This document shows positions 28,310 to 59,213 of a stretch of DNA of 64,000 bases, piece after piece. The notes below the pieces were generated by a model. It ran no database searches. It saw only the letters and a list, made by a program, of their open reading frames with translations, and was not told the origin of the DNA. Position 1 is the first letter of the stretch. Each line of letters begins with the position of its first letter. Location: positions 22,529,201-22,593,200 of the forward strand of contig OZ038422.1 of NCBI GenBank assembly GCA_964036155.1, in the 5' to 3' direction. The translations under genes were made by a program, and so were the position numbers. This stretch comes from Diploscapter coronatus (Eukaryota > Nematoda > Chromadorea > Rhabditida > Rhabditidae).

Positions 28310-29508
28310 ATGTCTGGTAGGTCGATTGATATAATAATCTAAACTGCATAATTTGATGCACTTATTTAGTGAAATTCAAAATGTTTACTTTTTATAAAGG
28401 ATGTTTTTGTTTAATTATCATATGAACATCAGGGCTGCACACTAATAAGATCTCGAGTCAGTTTTTTCCTTTAACTATAGAAGGAAACAGGCAACAGGTA
28501 CTGGAATTTTTTTACCTGTTTAGAGTTAAGACAAGTAAAGGTAAGAATTTGTGAATTTCACACAGGATTTCACACATGAGTCAATCCGGGTATATAGATC
28601 ACCCGCCGACACCGTGGCTACTCACATAGATGGAAGGGGTGCAGATCAATTCAAAATCGATGTTGATTACATATTGAATCCTTTATTTAATATCAAACAA
28701 ATCTAGACAAAAGCTTGAGGATAATGACTGCCTCTCCTAGCGGCTCCCTCTTTATATCTATCCAAGAGAGTGAGGGAGAGAAGTAAAGACAAAGATGTTT
28801 TTATATTACACTTCTTAATACAACGTATCACAAGGAACAGAATCGATTTTTCAATAATCGTGAGCAGCCTGATGATTATAATTTGAATGAGTATCCAATT
28901 TGCAAATTTTTATGTTTTGATTATAAATTAGAAAATATTTTTTCAGTTCGCGAAAAGCCTCCCGTATATCCTCAAGTGACGATGACACAAGGAGGCCAGA
29001 CGACGATTGTCACGAGGATGCAGCCGAGGTTCGATGAATATCAGCAGAGCCTGGTCTGCCCGAACTGCAGGGCCAACATCGTCACGAGAACTGTCTACAA
29101 AAATGGACTTCTCACTTGGATATCTGCTGGAGTGATGTTTATGTTAGGATTGTGGTGCTGCTGCTGCATACCGTAATTATTCAAGATTAAGCGGGAATCT
29201 GGATTTAACGCAATGGGTGAATGTGCTAACGCGAACATGACGAAGCACAATAGTTACTGTTAGAAATTGTGTAAGAAGAGAAAGAATTTCGTCATTTTCG
29301 CGTCACACGTCATTTCGTCATTACGCTATTTCCGAACTGTTAAAAAATAAAATTAAAATGAGGAGAATTTTCATTTTCAGGTGTTACATTGATGATCTGA
29401 GAGATGTCGAAGTAAGGTTGAATTTTTAAATCGATAGTTTAAAGAAATTTTCAGCATTATTGCCCATCATGTCATGCGCACCTTGGAACTTACAAGAGAA
29501 TCAAATAA
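28310..29508 (+). CDS. LITAF-domain (CDIP1/LITAF-like) membrane protein
   Basis: Four exons: 28310-28316, 28947-29172, 29381-29411 and 29455-29508. The joined protein starts MSVREKPPVYPQVTMTQGGQ and has the LITAF zinc-ribbon halves: CPNCRANIVTRTVYKNGLLT at about residue 45, a hydrophobic hairpin (WISAGVMFMLGLWCCCC), then HYCPSCHAHLGTYKRIK at the end. LITAF proteins insert monotopically into the cytosolic face of late endosomes and lysosomes and bind ESCRT or NEDD4-type partners; the Pro-rich N terminus (KPPVYP) fits that. Length (about 110 residues) is normal. The first exon has only seven coding bases before a 630-bp intron, so the start is set by frame and signal context. Confidence 0.87.
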
Positions 29509-38684: not shown

Positions 38685-39632
38685 ATTTGACAGAACCTAG
38701 AGCCATTTGTAAACAAATACAAGGAATACTGTATTAATAGATACTATCATTGGTAGAAATTCTGTAAAATTATTCAATTATTAATTATATTCTCTCATAG
38801 ATGGTGTTCATTGCAGAATAAAATGATTACTTCCGAATCTGCTTCAGTCAACATTGCAAAAGAATAGATCACAACCACGTGTTTACACCTTATTCTAAAT
38901 AAAAGAAACTATAATGGCAAAAATCAATTAATTTCTTGAAAAATATGAACAAGATAATTTTTAGTGAAGAGAAGTACACGTAGGAATGGTTTGACTTTAG
39001 GATGAGATGGGAATAGAGATTTCTGATGCGTTCCCCTTTCGCGACCTGGATCTATCGACCCAAGGGAAAGGAAGATATTCTAATTGAAAACTACGTCGTA
39101 TCACAGCATTTTCAATTACTCGCTCGACTCTTTGCAAAACTGTACATTTATAATTTTACGATTTTATTAAGCGAAATTTAGATTCACTGAATAATCTATC
39201 AAAACCATCACTGATTTACAATTTGTTGTGTATGAAAAATAGAAAAAGACCATTTAGAAAGGAAATAAGGTCTATTTAGGTTAATCGAATTTCATCTCGT
39301 CTTCCTTTGATTCACTCAAATTTTCAAATTGTCATTAAGATATAGTAGCCTTTTTCATTTTATATATTTTTCTTTTCAATAACCTGTTTCAATTTGTGGG
39401 TTTACTTGATATATTTTTAGTAAACTGACATAAATCATAATAATTTATTTGAGTCATATTGATTTTAAACTTGCGAACATAAACATTGACGTTTAAATTA
39501 CAGAAAAATATTGCGCAAAGCCTAAAAATATTTCGGCGTAACTAGATCCATTATATTCAGCCATAAATCAACTCCAATAGGCAAATCGACCTAAATTCAT
39601 CGAAAAAAATCAGAATATGGGTATTCCAATCT
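38685..39632. other. Intergenic, tail-to-tail
   Basis: Between the 3' ends of the lectin (+) and the Hog gene (-). No gene recognised. Confidence 0.5.
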
Positions 39633-42600
39633 TCATACCAAATCATTCAGTGTTGGAGAGGTTGTGAAACTCCTTAAAGCTTTTCGAAATTTCGTAACGA
39701 GCTGAGAATGCTTGTCATTATTAATCTGATAAACTTGTTCCATAGATAGAATCTTACTTCAGCAAATTTGTACTGTATGTTAATCTCCTTCACATTGCTA
39801 TGGCAGGAGGCAAACATATCATTCACAAATATCCGTCCATTGCTAGTCATCGGTGCATAAATTCCTTTTCGCTGTGTAATCCAAATCTCTTGAATTTTCT
39901 GTTGTTGGAAGAGACCCTGGAATATTTGGTAATCAAACGAGTTTTTAGAAATTCCAAAATTAGTATTTTCTCCAAATTCTATGCTATTTTCGCTATTTAT
40001 GACCATGAATGCGTGAAGAAAACGCGCATGTTAATTTTTAAATTACAAAAACTCATGAAATAAACAAAAATGACAAAGCAAATAATTGCTTAGATTGATA
40101 TTTTCTGCGCTATTGAAATTTTTATTCACAATTACCTTTTTCAATACGATCACACAATCTCCCTCCCTCAATTGATCGGCGTACACGGCTTTCGTTGGCA
40201 AAATCTCGATGTATTCATTGTAGATATCTAAAAATGTTCAATTTCGCATTTTCGAAGTATTGACTAGGATACTATCGCATGAAGTTTTGAATATTAGATG
40301 CTTTCCAGATAACCGCAGCATTTTTCCATATTCAGTCATGATTGTGAAGAAATACGCGTTATGTTCGGGCTCTCTGTGCATCCACATCGTAATTGGAGTG
40401 AAGAATGTCTAAAATAATTTTGAGAATTAAATATAAGACTTTTAATCGACAAAAGTCATTACATGAGTTTTATTAGCAGTCAGAACGAAATCGCCGACAT
40501 CGATTTCACTCATCCTTTTCTTTCCATTTGGAGTAGTCAGCCAGGTGTCGTCAGAGAAGCAATACCTTTGCAGCCAGTTCGAGTTTTGATACTCCTCTAG
40601 AATTTATCAATTCAACGACATTTTATTAGGGAAGAAATACGATAAAGACTGTTGGAATAGCTGGAAGCTTGAGCCCCGCCTGCCCGAGCCTGGGCTGCTG
40701 ATTGCTCTGCGATTGCTGCATTCTGAAAACAATGAAGATGTTATTAATCGAATATTGTATCGACCAAGTCTAAGCGGTAATAAATTACGATAAAAATTGT
40801 CAGGATATTTCTAAATTGCAGTTCGCCCTACTCTAAAAATTCATTCTATGGAATACGTTGAAGGCAATTCAACATAATTTCTAGAAGTAGAATCGAAATT
40901 GATCACTTAATGATTCAAAAAAACTAGCGACTTGTAATGAATTTCATACGTTCAGTGCCTTGACATTGGCACTTTAGATTTTAAGGGAACCTGCACACAA
41001 ATATCAAATTTGCAAAATTAAAATAATTGCTTATCGTAGTACCTGTTGAGACTGTGATTGAGCAATTTCCAAGGCACGCTGCGTTTGTGCGAGTTGGTTG
41101 GATAGTTGATTTATTGTGGCTCGATTCGCTGCTGATTGATCGGTTGGTCCTAGATTAAAGAAGATCATTTTTACTAATATTAAAACCATAAATGCTACCG
41201 GAATTCTGTCCTTGTGTCCCATCGCCTCCGTTTTGATTTATCGTGGCTTGATTCGCTGCTGATTGATCGGTTGGTCCTAGATTAAAGAAGATCACTTTTA
41301 ACAATATTAAAACCATAAATGCTACCGGAATTCTGTCCTTGTGCTCCATTGCCTCCGTTTTGATTTATTGTGGCTCGATTCGCTGCTGATTGACCAGCCG
41401 ATCCTAGATTACAGAGATTTATTTTTAACAATATCAAAACCATAAATGTTACCGGAACTCTGTCCTTGCGTCCCACCACCTCCGTTTGATTGTGGCAGAT
41501 CAACAAAGTCGCTTGAAGGAGGAGGCTGAATAATGGAGTTTTCTTGGAATCAGCGATTTCAATACTCAATGCAAATTTTAATTGAATCCAAGTTAGACAA
41601 TTTAAAAATTGCCGAGTTCAGGTCCAGTTCGTGTGTTACTTTTAAAAAATCTTGCAAAAATTCGAGTTGAATTTGAGATCGAAAATGTTCGAATTGTCAT
41701 AGACTCAGCACAAGCTGAGGTATTTCATGCCAAGTAATCACAATTTCAACTACTTAGCGTTCTTACGAGAGGACTCGACTGGAAAGTAAGCGCACTGAAG
41801 AGTCCTGCGTCGATCTTGCAGACCCTTTCGTTGTATCTCTGAGTGCCCCAGACGAATTCGGCCGGACTGACTATCGACTCGAATGTCGTGTTGAATTTCC
41901 TCTGCACTCGCCGTAGCAGCATCTGGAATGCTCGACCCCATGATTTCATTCGAAATATTGAGTTACAGTGGCCATTTTCTGAGTGTCATGTTTGTTGAAC
42001 CCTGGCAACTGTTTCTGCTCGTCAATTGTGCTGAATATTTCATACTGCAGCTCTGGGTTACAGCAGGCTTGGCCTAAATTATAGAGATAATCTTCAATGA
42101 TTTAGCTATTTCAGCCGATTGATACCGTTGAGCTCTTTCAGTTTAGATGGACAATTGGTCGATTTTGCTTCCCCCAGATCCACGTTAACTGGCCAGTGAA
42201 GGGGGTACTGAAGCGTTCATTTTCGCATTTAAGTCGAATGAATAGATTGGGTTTTTGAAGAATTCGCAATTTTTCAACCTGTTGTAATAGCATGTGGGAC
42301 TAGGAATAGTGCTGCGTGAGATTTCGATTTAGACTTCGGAGGTAAAAATTGTTGAAATTGAAAATTCGACTTTGATTTTGAATTTAAAAAAAAAAAATTC
42401 CACTCTCACGCGCTACCTTGGCTAATAGGAGAAAATATGAAAGAATAGGAAAGTTATCATTCCCACTCTCATACTATTTCAGTAGTTATGAAGTTGCGAA
42501 TTTTTCAAGCTACCAATAAATACGCGTTTTACCTTAACTTCTGTTTCATAGGCAAAGATATGGTATTTATCGACTCTGAATTTGCAAACTCGATCATTTT

Positions 42601-45600
42601 GATGATTGGCTCGGAAGACAAAATCGTCGTAGGACACAATGACTTCCATAGAGTGCTGCACGATCTCTTCTGCGTCCCATTGCAGCTTCTGAAAAGGAAT
42701 CGTTTTCTGTGAAATACTGTGAAATTTATGCAGTGATGCACAAGAGTTTGGAACAGCTTGTAGATTTTAAACATGACTGGTTGATACATTTGCAGTGTTT
42801 AGATCTGATTGAAAATTTCAAAAACTACAAATTTTTCAATCTTTTGCGCACCACTGTACTCACCTTTGCGATTTGTCGCAAATTATACTGATAGAAATTC
42901 GGCTGATCGATAAGTTCATTGTAAGCGCAGATTAACGCATTGTAAAGAGCTAGATTGCAACAATACGAGCCTAAACTGATATTGAGTTTCTTTGAAAAAG
43001 AAACTTTTGTCGTCATACCTTCATGTTCCAATTGACAATGTGAGTTTAGAGGGAACCCTTCTCTTTCACCGGCATGCTCAAGTGCGAGCGGAACGTGAAG
43101 TGACTTCATATTAGGCAGAACAATGTCTGTGGAGCCCAATGGCTCACGAACAGAAATTGAAAAGAAATAGTTCTCGGCTAATTGATAATCAATGTCGTAC
43201 TGAAAAATTTTCGAATTACAGAAAATTTGTAATCTTCGTGATTTTCAGCTTTTCATTTTGTGGTTCCTAGACAAGGCAACACGGATTTGGTGTAATGACG
43301 GACTGACGAAATGCAATATAAACGATAGGAATTGTGTGACAAGGGGTTATTTTCGGGCTCGTCATCTCACATGTCGTCCTTCTGTTCATAATGACATTTT
43401 CAAACTATTTCCAAACGATATAAATCGAAAGATTCTTTTCTGAGAAGGCATTATTTGAAATTTTATAATAATTTGTAAGATAAAATGGACCCTATCTAAC
43501 CTGTCTTGGTGTAGAATAGGCCAAAATGGTGAACTCCTTGTAGAACTGCTTGCAAATGACCGTGCCAACGTGATGAGTGACGAAGACGAAATCTCCCCTT
43601 GAGACGATCACCTCAAATGATTTCTCGAAGCGTCGTTGAATTGCCTTTTGAACTCTCTGAATTCAAATCAGTCCAATTTTCAGTAGGGCTGTAAATCATA
43701 TCGGCTCACAGATATTCTCGTCTTTCTCTTTTTTGCTTCTCTATCACCAACGTACTCTAGTCGCTCTTTCTCTTGACATTTTTCTGTTCATTAACGAGTT
43801 AGAGAGGAACAATGGATAAGCAGAGAAACGGAAAGAGAAGAGAGAGAATAGGATGCGTCGCTGGAAGCGAAAAAAAACCAAGAGAGAGAATACTTGCGAG
43901 CCGGTCCGATTTACAAGCCTGATATCTACCAAATCAGTAACATCTGTATTCTAAATACCCCAGCAATAATTCCTTCACTGCCTGGACCATACATGGGCGA
44001 AGTGGACAACTCAGTGACAGCATCTCGGATGGTCTTCGACAATACTCCATCGCAACATTTGTTTCCTGCATAATTTTGAAATTATTAGAAAATACGCAGT
44101 CCATTGTCAACCTGTCGTCTGCTTCATTATACAGTGCGTTCCTTTGGGCAGTTTTTCATTCCACCTAGAGTTTTCAAAATATTTCGGCTTCGGAGGAGGT
44201 CCGGCAACTTCATCAGTGGCGTTTACGTTTTGAGTTTGGCTCTTGTTTTCCTGAAACTCACCAAAATATCAATTAACTCATGAAATGAGAAGAATTTTGG
44301 TGGAGTTAGTCTTTGTTTGAAAGAATTGTAATTTTAGAAAGATATCTCAGGAACAAATATACCAAATCTAAGACCTCACAGAACAATATTTTGAAGAGAA
44401 AACTTAGGTACTTATTTAATCACATGGTTAGACTAATCTTAAATTTTTAAAAATCGATCTTATCTGAAATATAATATTTCAAGCATAAAAATTCACTTAC
44501 GATCAATGTCTCATCTTCTTCATCTGATTTATCTATGATGAAACTCGGAGTTTCCATTTCCGATTCGACACTATTTTTCTCGATTTGGCGATGTTTTCTA
44601 TTCACCGTTCTTTCTGATCTCTTCCGTCTCAAATATAATCTTCCAGTTTGGTTTTTATATCCTGAGGATCAATTTCAATGAAAATTTCAATCAAAAGGTA
44701 TCACTTTGATCGTCATACTTAAACTGATTGTCATATGTCTCGATTTGTCTTATTGGTGGTTGGCAGGACAGATCTTCTAAAATACAAATACCATCAATAA
44801 AATCTCCATGATTTGCAATAGTGGGCATAAATATGGAACCAAGCATGATTTTATTCTTGATCTGACTTTCTTCAATTTTAGTGAACCGATTTCACCACAA
44901 TTTTTTTTTACAAATATTGCCATTTGTAAGACCTGAAATTCTCTAAAATTCCAACCAAAATCGATTTCATTAAGGATTTAGAAATACGGCAGTTTTATGA
45001 AGTAATAAAACGATTTTGACTTTACAAAGCTATCAATTTTCTTAAATCTGTTCATTTCGCTTCAAATTGAGTCGATTTTGATGCCTGAATGGCAACTTGA
45101 AAACTGTATGACATTATGATAAGATTTGACGAAATATAGAGAGAAAATCTGCCTCACTCTATCATCTTCTACTCTATTTTGCCTACGATTTTAATTGTAT
45201 CATGCGGTTTCCAAATATATTGCGCGAAAATGATATAAAATTTGTACAATTTTATAAACAAAACACTAAAAATTATGAAAGAAAATAATGGAAAATCAAT
45301 AATATCGTAGAAAAATTGCCGCATTTTAGTAAAAAGCGTGTTGTAGTATAGCTGTTGCCTAGAAATACAATAATACTCTACACACTCATGCTCGGCTCCA
45401 TAATTTTGTTGCCACTGTAATTGCTACCTCCAGCAAGTGGATCTTCAGCAATGTCTGGGAAATACCCCCTCACACCCAGCGGTCTCGTCGACCCCAAATG
45501 TTCCTGTGCATCCAGAGCTGTAAACCAATCCTCGCGTGTGATGTCGAATGGATCATACTAAACTTGACTCATCATAACTGAGTGACTCTCGTTCAATTTT

Positions 45601-46552
45601 TACAAAAGTCGGAGTCTCGTAGATTAGATAGTGATATCTTCCATCTGAGATTCTGCATGATCTCGAGCCGTGATAATACGAGGAAATCGCGAAATTTCTC
45701 GCTGTGACGATCACTTCAAAGGTGACATGGAATTCGAGTTGGGCTCGTCTTTGGATGAACTGATTCGAAGATTTTTATCTTGAGAGAAATCTGGTGTTAC
45801 TTTGACAGCATCCCCCAACTTCTCCGAGTTGATACCCATTTCGATCGATTTCCGCAGGCTTTCTTCCAGATCCAAGTCGCAGCAGCGAACTTGGAGGCTT
45901 TGATATGGATGATTTTCATCTAAATTTTTTGTTTATATTGAATTGAAGTATTATTTAAATCCGATCGAGTAAACTGTTGATAAATATGTAATAAAGCATA
46001 GAAGAAAGTACGCAGAGTAGTGCACAGATTAATCGTCAACTTTTAGTGCAATTTTCACTCTTCCATTGGCCATTTCGACGACATATCTGCGTATCATAGT
46101 GCTTACTTTCTTTCACTTTGTTACGCATTTTTTTTTTCATATTTTACTCCGTTTGATCCAGATACGCGTGCGGAATTCCGATTCCAAGGGTTTTTGGTCC
46201 TTAGAACTTCAATTCTGCTGTGAAAAATCAATTTCGATTTCGAACTTTTCAAAACTAAGTTTCGAGGCCCCTGATTTGATCAATGCAATAGTTTGTTTAC
46301 CCAAAGGAACTCCTTCATCGGATACGAGCCAGTCGCAAGCAGGGGGTCTTCTAACAGCAGCATTGTTTGGCCCTTCTCGATATTCAGTCAATTCATTCTG
46401 GTAGAAAGGAGAATGCTGTTGCTGCTGCTGAAAATTTTCCGCATACCTTTTTCAGGTTTAACGTGCTTTACCAATTTTTCAGAAATTATAGGTTGAACAT
46501 GCATCAGAATAAGTAGGTTCAGATGAATCATTATCCATTCTATCCATAGCAT
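39633..46552 (-). CDS. Hedgehog-related (groundhog-like) precursor: four Ground-like modules plus Hog/Hint domain
   Basis: About 25 exons. The signal peptide is MLWIEWIMIHLNLLILMHVQ, after TTTTAG|A; a 44-bp intron follows. Four Ground-like modules come in order, each split by an intron. (1) CCDLDLEESLRKSIEMG plus FEVIVTARNFAISSYY. (2) KCCDGVLSKTIRDAVTEL plus FEVIVSRGDFVFVTHH. (3) YCCNLALYNALICAYNE plus MEVIVSYDDFVFRANH. (4) ACCNPELQYEIFSTIDE plus FESIVSPAEFVWGTQ. An RRKR (furin-like) site lies between modules 1 and 2. A Gln/Asn/Gly linker with tandemly repeated exons follows, then a Hint domain: RYCFSDDTWLTTPNGKKRMS, EIDVGDFVL, RLSGKHLIF and GIYAPMTSNGRIFVNDMFAS then CH. The Hint Cys at RYC|FS predicts autoprocessing as in Hedgehog. 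Nematode Ground/Hog proteins act in cuticle and moulting. The last exon (39633 versus 39674) is uncertain. Confidence 0.85.
41108..41497 (-). repeat. Tandem exon-intron repeats (~126-127 bp) in the Hog gene linker
   Basis: About three units, each one exon of about 78 bp plus one intron of about 48 bp, encode versions of GPTDQSAANQATINQNGG then DGTQGQNS. Units are 85-95% alike including the introns, so they are recent duplications. Each exon keeps the same phase on both sides, so unit number can change without breaking the frame. Confidence 0.85.
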
Positions 46553-58168: not shown

Positions 58169-58694
58169 CGTGAAAATTCCGATTTTTCAAAATTTTGAGT
58201 TAGACGTTCAAATCATATACCATTCGATAGAGCATGAAAAACTGAGAAGATTGTGAAAACACCTCCAAAAATTCTTGCAGCAATCGACTCAGCTCGTCGA
58301 GCTGGTGCTTCTGATATAGGTTTCGGAGTGTTGGAGTGACTTTTGAAATTTGACCTCCGGACCAGAATTTGGAAACTTCGGGAAAAAAGCCTCAAAATGG
58401 TGTTCTCCAGGTCGAATATAGGTAGAAAATATTCACATATCCCCTAAAAACGAATTTGAACCCTCTGGTCCGAGCAGTTTCTAGAATTACGGAGAATCGG
58501 TTTTAAATTTTTTGTGTGCTGAATCATTCTGTTTTTGTTCGATCAAATGATCCTGAAACTGTTTATATGTCGATTGGGAAATACAATCCGCCGCTAATCA
58601 ATGTTTATTCAAGTTCACGAAATAAAAGAATGGCTCTAGTAGTATTAATATTGATACTGGAAGTGTTTGACACCAATTGTAACCCGAATCAACT

Positions 58695-59213
58695 ATGTTC
58701 GAGTATTATTTAGTTTGGCTATATATTTTTCTAATTAGCGGAGGATTTGCTCATAGTAAGGAGATTGCCGAAGAAGTTGAGCATCGAGAACATCATGAGC
58801 GTGACAAGCGTTTTCTCCCATTGCTTGGCGTCGTTTTGAGTGTAGCTTCGTTGGGTGTAGCAATAGTTGATACGATCCTTCAAAACACCAAATCTGAATC
58901 TAAGCCAGTAGTGACAGTAGTTATCAAGGAGGATCGTCAAGTTCGTGAGGCTGCAGAAAAACTGGGCTCAGCCACGAGAATTGCTGACGGAGTTTATGAG
59001 GTTCGTGGTACACGAAATACGATAAGCTGTAGCCCCGAGTTTTGCAACAAACTCGGAAGACTTGGAGAAGCAGCGTTTTCACTTGTATGCAGTTCCGAAT
59101 TTTGTCATTGCGATACAGGTGAAAGAGCCTGGAAGAAATCATGCGGAGTTGGTACCGTGTTTAACCCAATTCACAGGGTTTGTGACTGGCCAAGAAATGT
59201 TCCTGGATGTTGA
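58695..59213 (+). CDS. Intronless secreted protein with C-terminal chitin-binding (peritrophin-A) domain
   Basis: 172 residues in one exon. Signal peptide [20 protein letters not shown]; a His/Glu-rich charged spacer ([13 protein letters not shown]); a hydrophobic stretch [20 protein letters not shown]; a mixed segment ending VYEVRGTRN. The Cys-rich end is [51 protein letters not shown] then PGC. The ending C...GTVFNP...CDWP.NVPGC is the classic type-2 chitin-binding domain, so it probably binds chitin in eggshell, pharyngeal lining or cuticle-associated matrix. The RDKR before the hydrophobic stretch could be a furin site. No introns, unlike nearly all neighbours. Confidence 0.82.

What the first reader, a model, noticed from the sequence alone, without database searches (positions are those of the whole stretch)
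39633..46552. One precursor with four Ground-like modules and a self-processing Hog domain
Seen: four CC...L...FEVIV...C Ground-like modules, each with the same intron split, precede a Hint/Hog domain with its nucleophilic Cys. Known: C. elegans groundhog (GRD) and GRL proteins, as I recall them, carry a single Ground/Ground-like domain, with Hog in only some. Inference: one transcript could yield several secreted Ground-like ligands, released by furin-type cleavage (RRKR between modules 1 and 2) and Hint autoprocessing. That is a polyprotein logic not usual for hedgehog-related genes.
Basis: partly seen in the sequence, partly recalled or inferred. Interest (0 to 1): 0.75.

Follow-up and report, generated by a model that had tools for sequence, protein, structure and literature searches.

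The report
Four-module groundhog gene of a nematode
This is an intact worm gene of the known groundhog family, whose layout of four repeated modules followed by a self-cutting domain was described in C. elegans in 2006; what looks new is that each module is predicted to fold like the cell's LC8 dynein light chain, made here as a secreted, cysteine-containing part.

Summary
The minus strand, 46552 to 39522, carries an intact 27-exon gene (1035 aa) of Diploscapter pachys: four Ground modules, a low-complexity linker and a Hint/Hog domain. Every module is split by the same phase-0 intron. The gene ends 111 bases beyond the finding.

The claimed novelty does not hold. C. [quoted passage not shown] Complete Caenorhabditis relatives have four modules; three strongylids have five. 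D. pachys has at least 20 such loci on its two large contigs.

A four-ligand polyprotein is not supported. RX[KR]R sites between modules lie only in linker 1-2 (16 of 20 loci; 0 of 20 in linkers 2-3 and 3-4). At most two N-terminal products plus Hog are likely. The window gene and its partner show dN/dS 0.15.

Unexpected: the module looks like a secreted LC8 (dynein light chain) fold. PF01221 exceeds its cut-off on the window protein, and two AlphaFold2 models of relatives have dynein-light-chain-type chains leading their PDB matches. The models have low overall confidence, and sequence profiles alone are not significant. One search found no paper naming both domains.

The parts
39522..46552 (-). 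whole coding span of the groundhog (GRD-1/2/11-type) gene, 27 exons, 1035 aa
   Evidence: gene model; aligner recovery; Pfam
46472..46552 (-). exon 1: start codon and hydrophobic N-terminus, read by eye as a signal peptide
   Evidence: no signal-peptide predictor was run
45604..45919 (-). Ground module 1 (exons 3 and 4; residues 79-162)
44618..44629 (-). RRKR, furin-type site in linker 1-2 (residues 240-243)
43501..44065 (-). Ground module 2 (exons 9 and 10; residues 329-417)
   Evidence: also the best stretch of PF01221 Dynein_light (360-411)
42533..42970 (-). Ground module 3 (exons 12 and 13; residues 477-565)
41767..42073 (-). Ground module 4 (exons 15 and 16; residues 592-680)
41043..41525 (-). 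low-complexity linker exons 17-20; 41106-41491 is a 127-bp tandem array, the repeat unit being a 78-nt exon plus a 49-nt intron
   Evidence: the partner locus has one unit fewer
39522..40596 (-). Hint/Hog domain, exons 22-27
   Evidence: Pfam Hint residues 826-1005; relatives' profile matches PDB chains named Protein hedgehog
40559..40561 (-). Hint nucleophile Cys831
40376..40378 (-). His874 at the position of Hedgehog Asp303 (general base)
   Evidence: alignments of relatives
39803..39805 (-). Cys977 in the SCH motif, equivalent of Hedgehog Cys400
   Evidence: the name Cys400 is recalled

Best explanation
It is a groundhog gene of the GRD-1/GRD-2/GRD-11 type in the nematode Diploscapter pachys. 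Shown by computation: an intact precursor with four Ground modules and a C-terminal Hog domain, under purifying selection, in a family expanded in this genome. Inferred: the chain is secreted; each module folds as a disulfide-bonded, LC8-like domain; Hint Cys831 cleaves the Hog domain from the N-terminal part, possibly attaching a lipid; and a proprotein convertase may cut once in linker 1-2. That would give module 1 and a three-module fragment, most likely parts of the cuticle or precuticle, as reported for several other hedgehog-related proteins, rather than four separate ligands.
For: Intact model; four Ground stretches and Hint; Caenorhabditis and strongylid homologues with the same domains. 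Module tree: modules 1, 3 and 4 each form a clade across genera (95/94, 100/100, 100/99). dN/dS 0.154. The same layout is described for C. [quoted passage not shown] Linker 1-2 RX[KR]R in 16 of 20 loci. Hedgehog-related proteins as precuticle and cuticle parts (PMC11304992 passages). LC8-like fold.
Against: No RNA or protein data. No C. elegans GRD sequence came back under that name in any call, so kinship to grd-1 is inferred from congeners and the published layout. Module 2 does not resolve as a clade. The furin motif in this one protein is not significant against shuffles (P 0.0885). Four of 20 loci lack it, and in L031 it sits at another place in the linker. No signal-peptide predictor was run.
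Confidence: 0.85

Rival explanations
1. A polyprotein that is cut between all modules to give four separate Ground ligands.
For: RRKR in linker 1-2; RX[KR]R in linker 1-2 in 16 of 20 loci; six Caenorhabditis or Caenorhabditis-like rows have one site before their last module.
Against: 0 of 20 D. pachys loci have RX[KR]R in linkers 2-3 or 3-4. The Cylicocyclus proteins P0012 and P0015 and the Angiostrongylus protein P0021 have none (P0015 and P0021 are partial models); Ancylostoma and Dictyocaulus have theirs before the first module.
Confidence: 0.08
2. The four modules stay together (apart from at most one cut) and act as a multivalent extracellular hub: LC8-like modules pair with each other or with peptides and cross-link the matrix.
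For: LC8-like fold matches; LC8 is described as a dimeric hub protein (abstracts in the search listing); four or five modules are kept in tandem across genera.
Against: No dimer was modelled; module number varies from four to five; no peptide-binding residue was tested; a shared fold shows no function.
Confidence: 0.25
3. The interval holds two or more separate genes, wrongly joined.
For: A 651-bp intron follows module 1, and AATAAA occurs inside the span; the public D. pachys model stops early in Hog (P0001).
Against: In-phase splice sites throughout; the public model itself runs from module 1 to the start of Hint (P0001); public predictions in four other genera (Caenorhabditis, Cylicocyclus, Ancylostoma, Angiostrongylus) hold several modules and Hint in one protein.
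Confidence: 0.04
4. A decaying or artefactual copy.
For: The gene belongs to a multi-copy family in this genome.
Against: Two intact copies, dN/dS 0.154, one non-synonymous change in Hint.
Confidence: 0.02

Closest known systems
C. elegans groundhog genes grd-1, grd-2, grd-11 (one co-orthologue in C. briggsae)
   Same: four Ground domains and a Hint/Hog domain (PMC1636047 section 5; PMC2362128 passages)
   Different: D. pachys has at least 20 such loci over two large contigs; the inter-module furin-type site is in linker 1-2, whereas the Caenorhabditis relatives examined here have it before the last module
Ground-like (GRL) and other GRD proteins
   Same: Ground or Ground-like domain (Pfam PF04155 matches the modules here)
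   Different: listed without Hog (Table 1); a single domain in most, as recalled
LC8 / DYNLL dynein light chain (PF01221)
   Same: predicted two helices and three or four strands per module, with dynein-light-chain-type chains leading the PDB matches
   Different: secreted precursor, cysteine-containing, in tandem; identity in the fold matches is 3-21%
Hedgehog Hint domain
   Same: first Cys, T/SxxH and SC[YH] motifs; profile match to PDB chains named Protein hedgehog, E down to 1.3e-16
   Different: His at the Asp303 position; no Hedge domain found by Pfam

Membership tests
groundhog (GRD-1/2/11 type) | four Ground domains upstream of Hog | tested here: met
   definition from PMC1636047
groundhog (GRD-1/2/11 type) | Hint/Hog domain with nucleophilic Cys | tested here: met
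groundhog (GRD-1/2/11 type) | homology to Caenorhabditis four-Ground Hog proteins | tested here: met
   C. nigoni P0009 E 1.0e-221, 39% over 51% of the query; in the tree all D. pachys loci fall on one side of a weakly supported split (79/69); C. elegans proteins themselves were not retrieved by name
groundhog (GRD-1/2/11 type) | signal peptide | not tested
   hydrophobic start read by eye only
groundhog (GRD-1/2/11 type) | autoprocessing activity | not testable with these tools
   needs biochemistry
LC8-like fold | PF01221 profile above its cut-off | tested here: inconclusive
   met for 2 of 17 proteins scanned: window 33.8 bits (34.2 for the first version) and P0012 30.3 bits against 29.1; single modules at best E 0.0041
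LC8-like fold | predicted structure superposes on LC8 | tested here: met
LC8-like fold | sequence profile finds LC8 in the PDB | tested here: inconclusive
   best LC8 E 0.21 all modules, 1.4 module 2 (85), 0.28 module 4 (88), other proteins ranking higher each time; no LC8 row for modules 1 and 3 (86, 87)

The most novel reading that the evidence does not exclude
The Ground domain of nematode hedgehog-related proteins is a secreted, disulfide-bonded version of the LC8 dynein light chain fold. Tandem four- and five-module groundhogs are then extracellular LC8-like arrays that Hog releases, and lineages have placed a single furin-type cut at different points of the array.
Probability: 0.55. Interest if true: 0.65.

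Novelty: new member of a known kind. Interest (0 to 1): 0.42.

Why it matters
As a gene it is ordinary: a well-preserved groundhog. It matters in two ways. First, it shows an expansion (at least 20 loci on two large contigs that I read as homologous chromosomes, against 3 genes in C. elegans and 1 in C. briggsae) and a processing site that sits at different places in different lineages. Second, it gives a testable fold for the Ground domain, for which sequence profiles found no significant solved relative. If the LC8-like fold is right, what hedgehog-related proteins do in the cuticle can be asked as a question about dimerisation and peptide binding.

Tried and rejected
Expanded copies as cargo of a mobile element: among the 14 loci compared the shared stretch usually starts about 750 bp upstream and ends near the modelled gene end, 84-91% alike (97% for the L024/L025 pair); I saw no sign of a transposon there, but terminal repeats and target duplications were not scanned for. 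A single-module GRL set for a deep alignment: one hit only. Viral structure library: no row named as a dynein light chain among the 50 listed. Profile-profile comparison with LC8: probability 4-6%, P 0.0065 and 0.0096, score reached by 1 of 200 shuffles. ZinT, ferritin (85) and LC3 (86) ranked above LC8 in sequence-only searches and count against the fold claim. NCBIfam gave only a sub-cut-off intein match.

Rows left out: the tree used 10 of 22 returned proteins plus the 20 loci; annotated D. pachys versions (P0001-P0008, P0014), partial P0015, and P0016 and P0022 were left out. The module tree used modules over 75 residues from eight proteins or models and two loci. A2 holds 19 of the 84 module pieces, chosen by hand; A5 leaves out the Dictyocaulus module (9 of 10).

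Full report
What is there. The minus strand from 46552 to 39522 carries a 27-exon gene of 1035 codons without stop or frameshift. A first version (25 exons, 981 aa) was corrected after comparison with public relatives fetched: an exon after module 1 and a last exon (39590-39522) were added and splice sites shifted. Pfam on the corrected protein gives four Ground-like stretches (2.5e-59) and Hint (1.9e-39). Each of the four modules consists of a CC exon (119 or 107 nt) and a 156-nt exon with a phase-0 intron between them. Each module has CC and a later C, with a further C upstream of it; module 3 has one C more.

Which organism. The assembly has three contigs, two of them 87.7 and 82.0 Mb. I read these two as homologous chromosomes; that this species has one chromosome pair is recalled. 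The public model lacks parts of modules 1 and 2 and most of Hog.

Is it functional. The partner locus L032 is intact and has one 127-bp linker unit (exon plus intron) fewer. Between the two, 976 of 1006 aligned residues agree; dS is 0.084, dN 0.013, ratio 0.154; Hint has 1 non-synonymous and 4 synonymous changes.

Is it new. [quoted passage not shown] briggsae, and its Table 1 marks all three as having Hog. PMC2362128 (passages) labels the four as repeats R1 to R4 and counts 3 groundhog genes in C. elegans and 1 in C. briggsae. The finding's refuter is therefore met. Of the 12 papers listed, these two hold the phrase 'four ground domains'.

Family. Three protein searches returned 22 proteins. 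My module profile was run on 21 of them. It counts four modules in C. nigoni, P0010, C. angaria and C. bovis and five in Cylicocyclus P0012, Ancylostoma and Dictyocaulus. Partial public models give three in P0015, P0017 and P0019 and four in P0021; nine annotated D. pachys proteins give four, some of them cut short; P0016 has none. P0022, scored, has none by this profile. In the module tree of 43 rows, module 1 (95/94), module 3 (100/100) and module 4 (100/99) form clades across genera, the extra strongylid module stands apart (99/99), and module 2 is unresolved. In D. pachys I modelled 19 further loci with a homology-guided spliced aligner. All 19 have four modules and a Hint Cys with no stop, but the aligner penalises stops, so this is weak evidence of intactness. 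With the window that makes 20 loci, 11 on C1 and 9 on C2; the genome scan is a lower bound. The tree of 30 rows puts them on one side of a weak split (79/69), with the window pair sister to a 14-locus group inside a 16-row clade (100/99).

Processing. RX[KR]R occurs in linker 1-2 in 16 of 20 loci (absent in L019, L034, L036, L038; at another place in L031) and in linkers 2-3 and 3-4 in none. In six Caenorhabditis or Caenorhabditis-like rows the one site between modules lies before the last module. In Ancylostoma and Dictyocaulus the one site precedes the first module. P0012, P0015 and P0021 have none. Within one protein the motif is not significant or barely so (P 0.0885 window, 0.1065 P0002, 0.028 C. 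nigoni, 1.0 for P0012 and P0018), and shared ancestry inflates the count across paralogues. One cut, not three, is the most these data allow.

Hog chemistry. Of 42 rows, 38 show the first Cys motif. The letter at the Hedgehog Asp303 position was read in 35 of these 38 and is His in all 35; rows include annotated and re-modelled versions of the same genes. T/SxxH was read in 32 of the 38 and SC[YH] in 31. In the fly Hint, Asp303 to His keeps activity and widens sterol tolerance (PMC9163320 and PMC8529194, passages). Groundhogs carry this residue naturally. Whether nematode Hog domains attach a sterol was open in PMC2362128 (passage) and is not tested here.

Mechanism. Shown: gene, modules, Hint motifs, selection, family. 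Inferred from family knowledge: secretion, Hog cleavage, a place in cuticle or precuticle (PMC11304992, passages). Inferred from motifs: one convertase cut. Speculative: LC8-like pairing of modules.

Noticed in passing
window 41106-41491: 127-bp tandem array, three copies, whose unit is a 78-nt exon plus a 49-nt intron; the partner locus has one unit fewer, so the linker changes length by whole exons.
   Followed up: partly
C1:25942-170860 and C2:26938-185564 of the assembly: Clusters of dynein-light-chain-type (PF01221) hits near the starts of both large contigs.
   Followed up: no
P0003, P0005 (public D. pachys models): An animal haem peroxidase fragment is fused upstream of groundhog copies; perhaps a merged gene model.
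   Followed up: no
window 28787-29173 and 58683-59210 (+): A LITAF-like zinc ribbon exon and a chitin-binding peritrophin-type reading frame.
   Followed up: no
groundhog Hog domains of D. pachys, Caenorhabditis and strongylids: His at the Hedgehog Asp303 position in all 35 rows read of 38 with the first Cys motif: a natural case of the engineered general-base swap.
   Followed up: partly
G000:C1:67056500-67085400 (L024, L025): Two groundhog copies 18.5 kb apart, 97% alike, pointing to a recent tandem duplication on C1.
   Followed up: no
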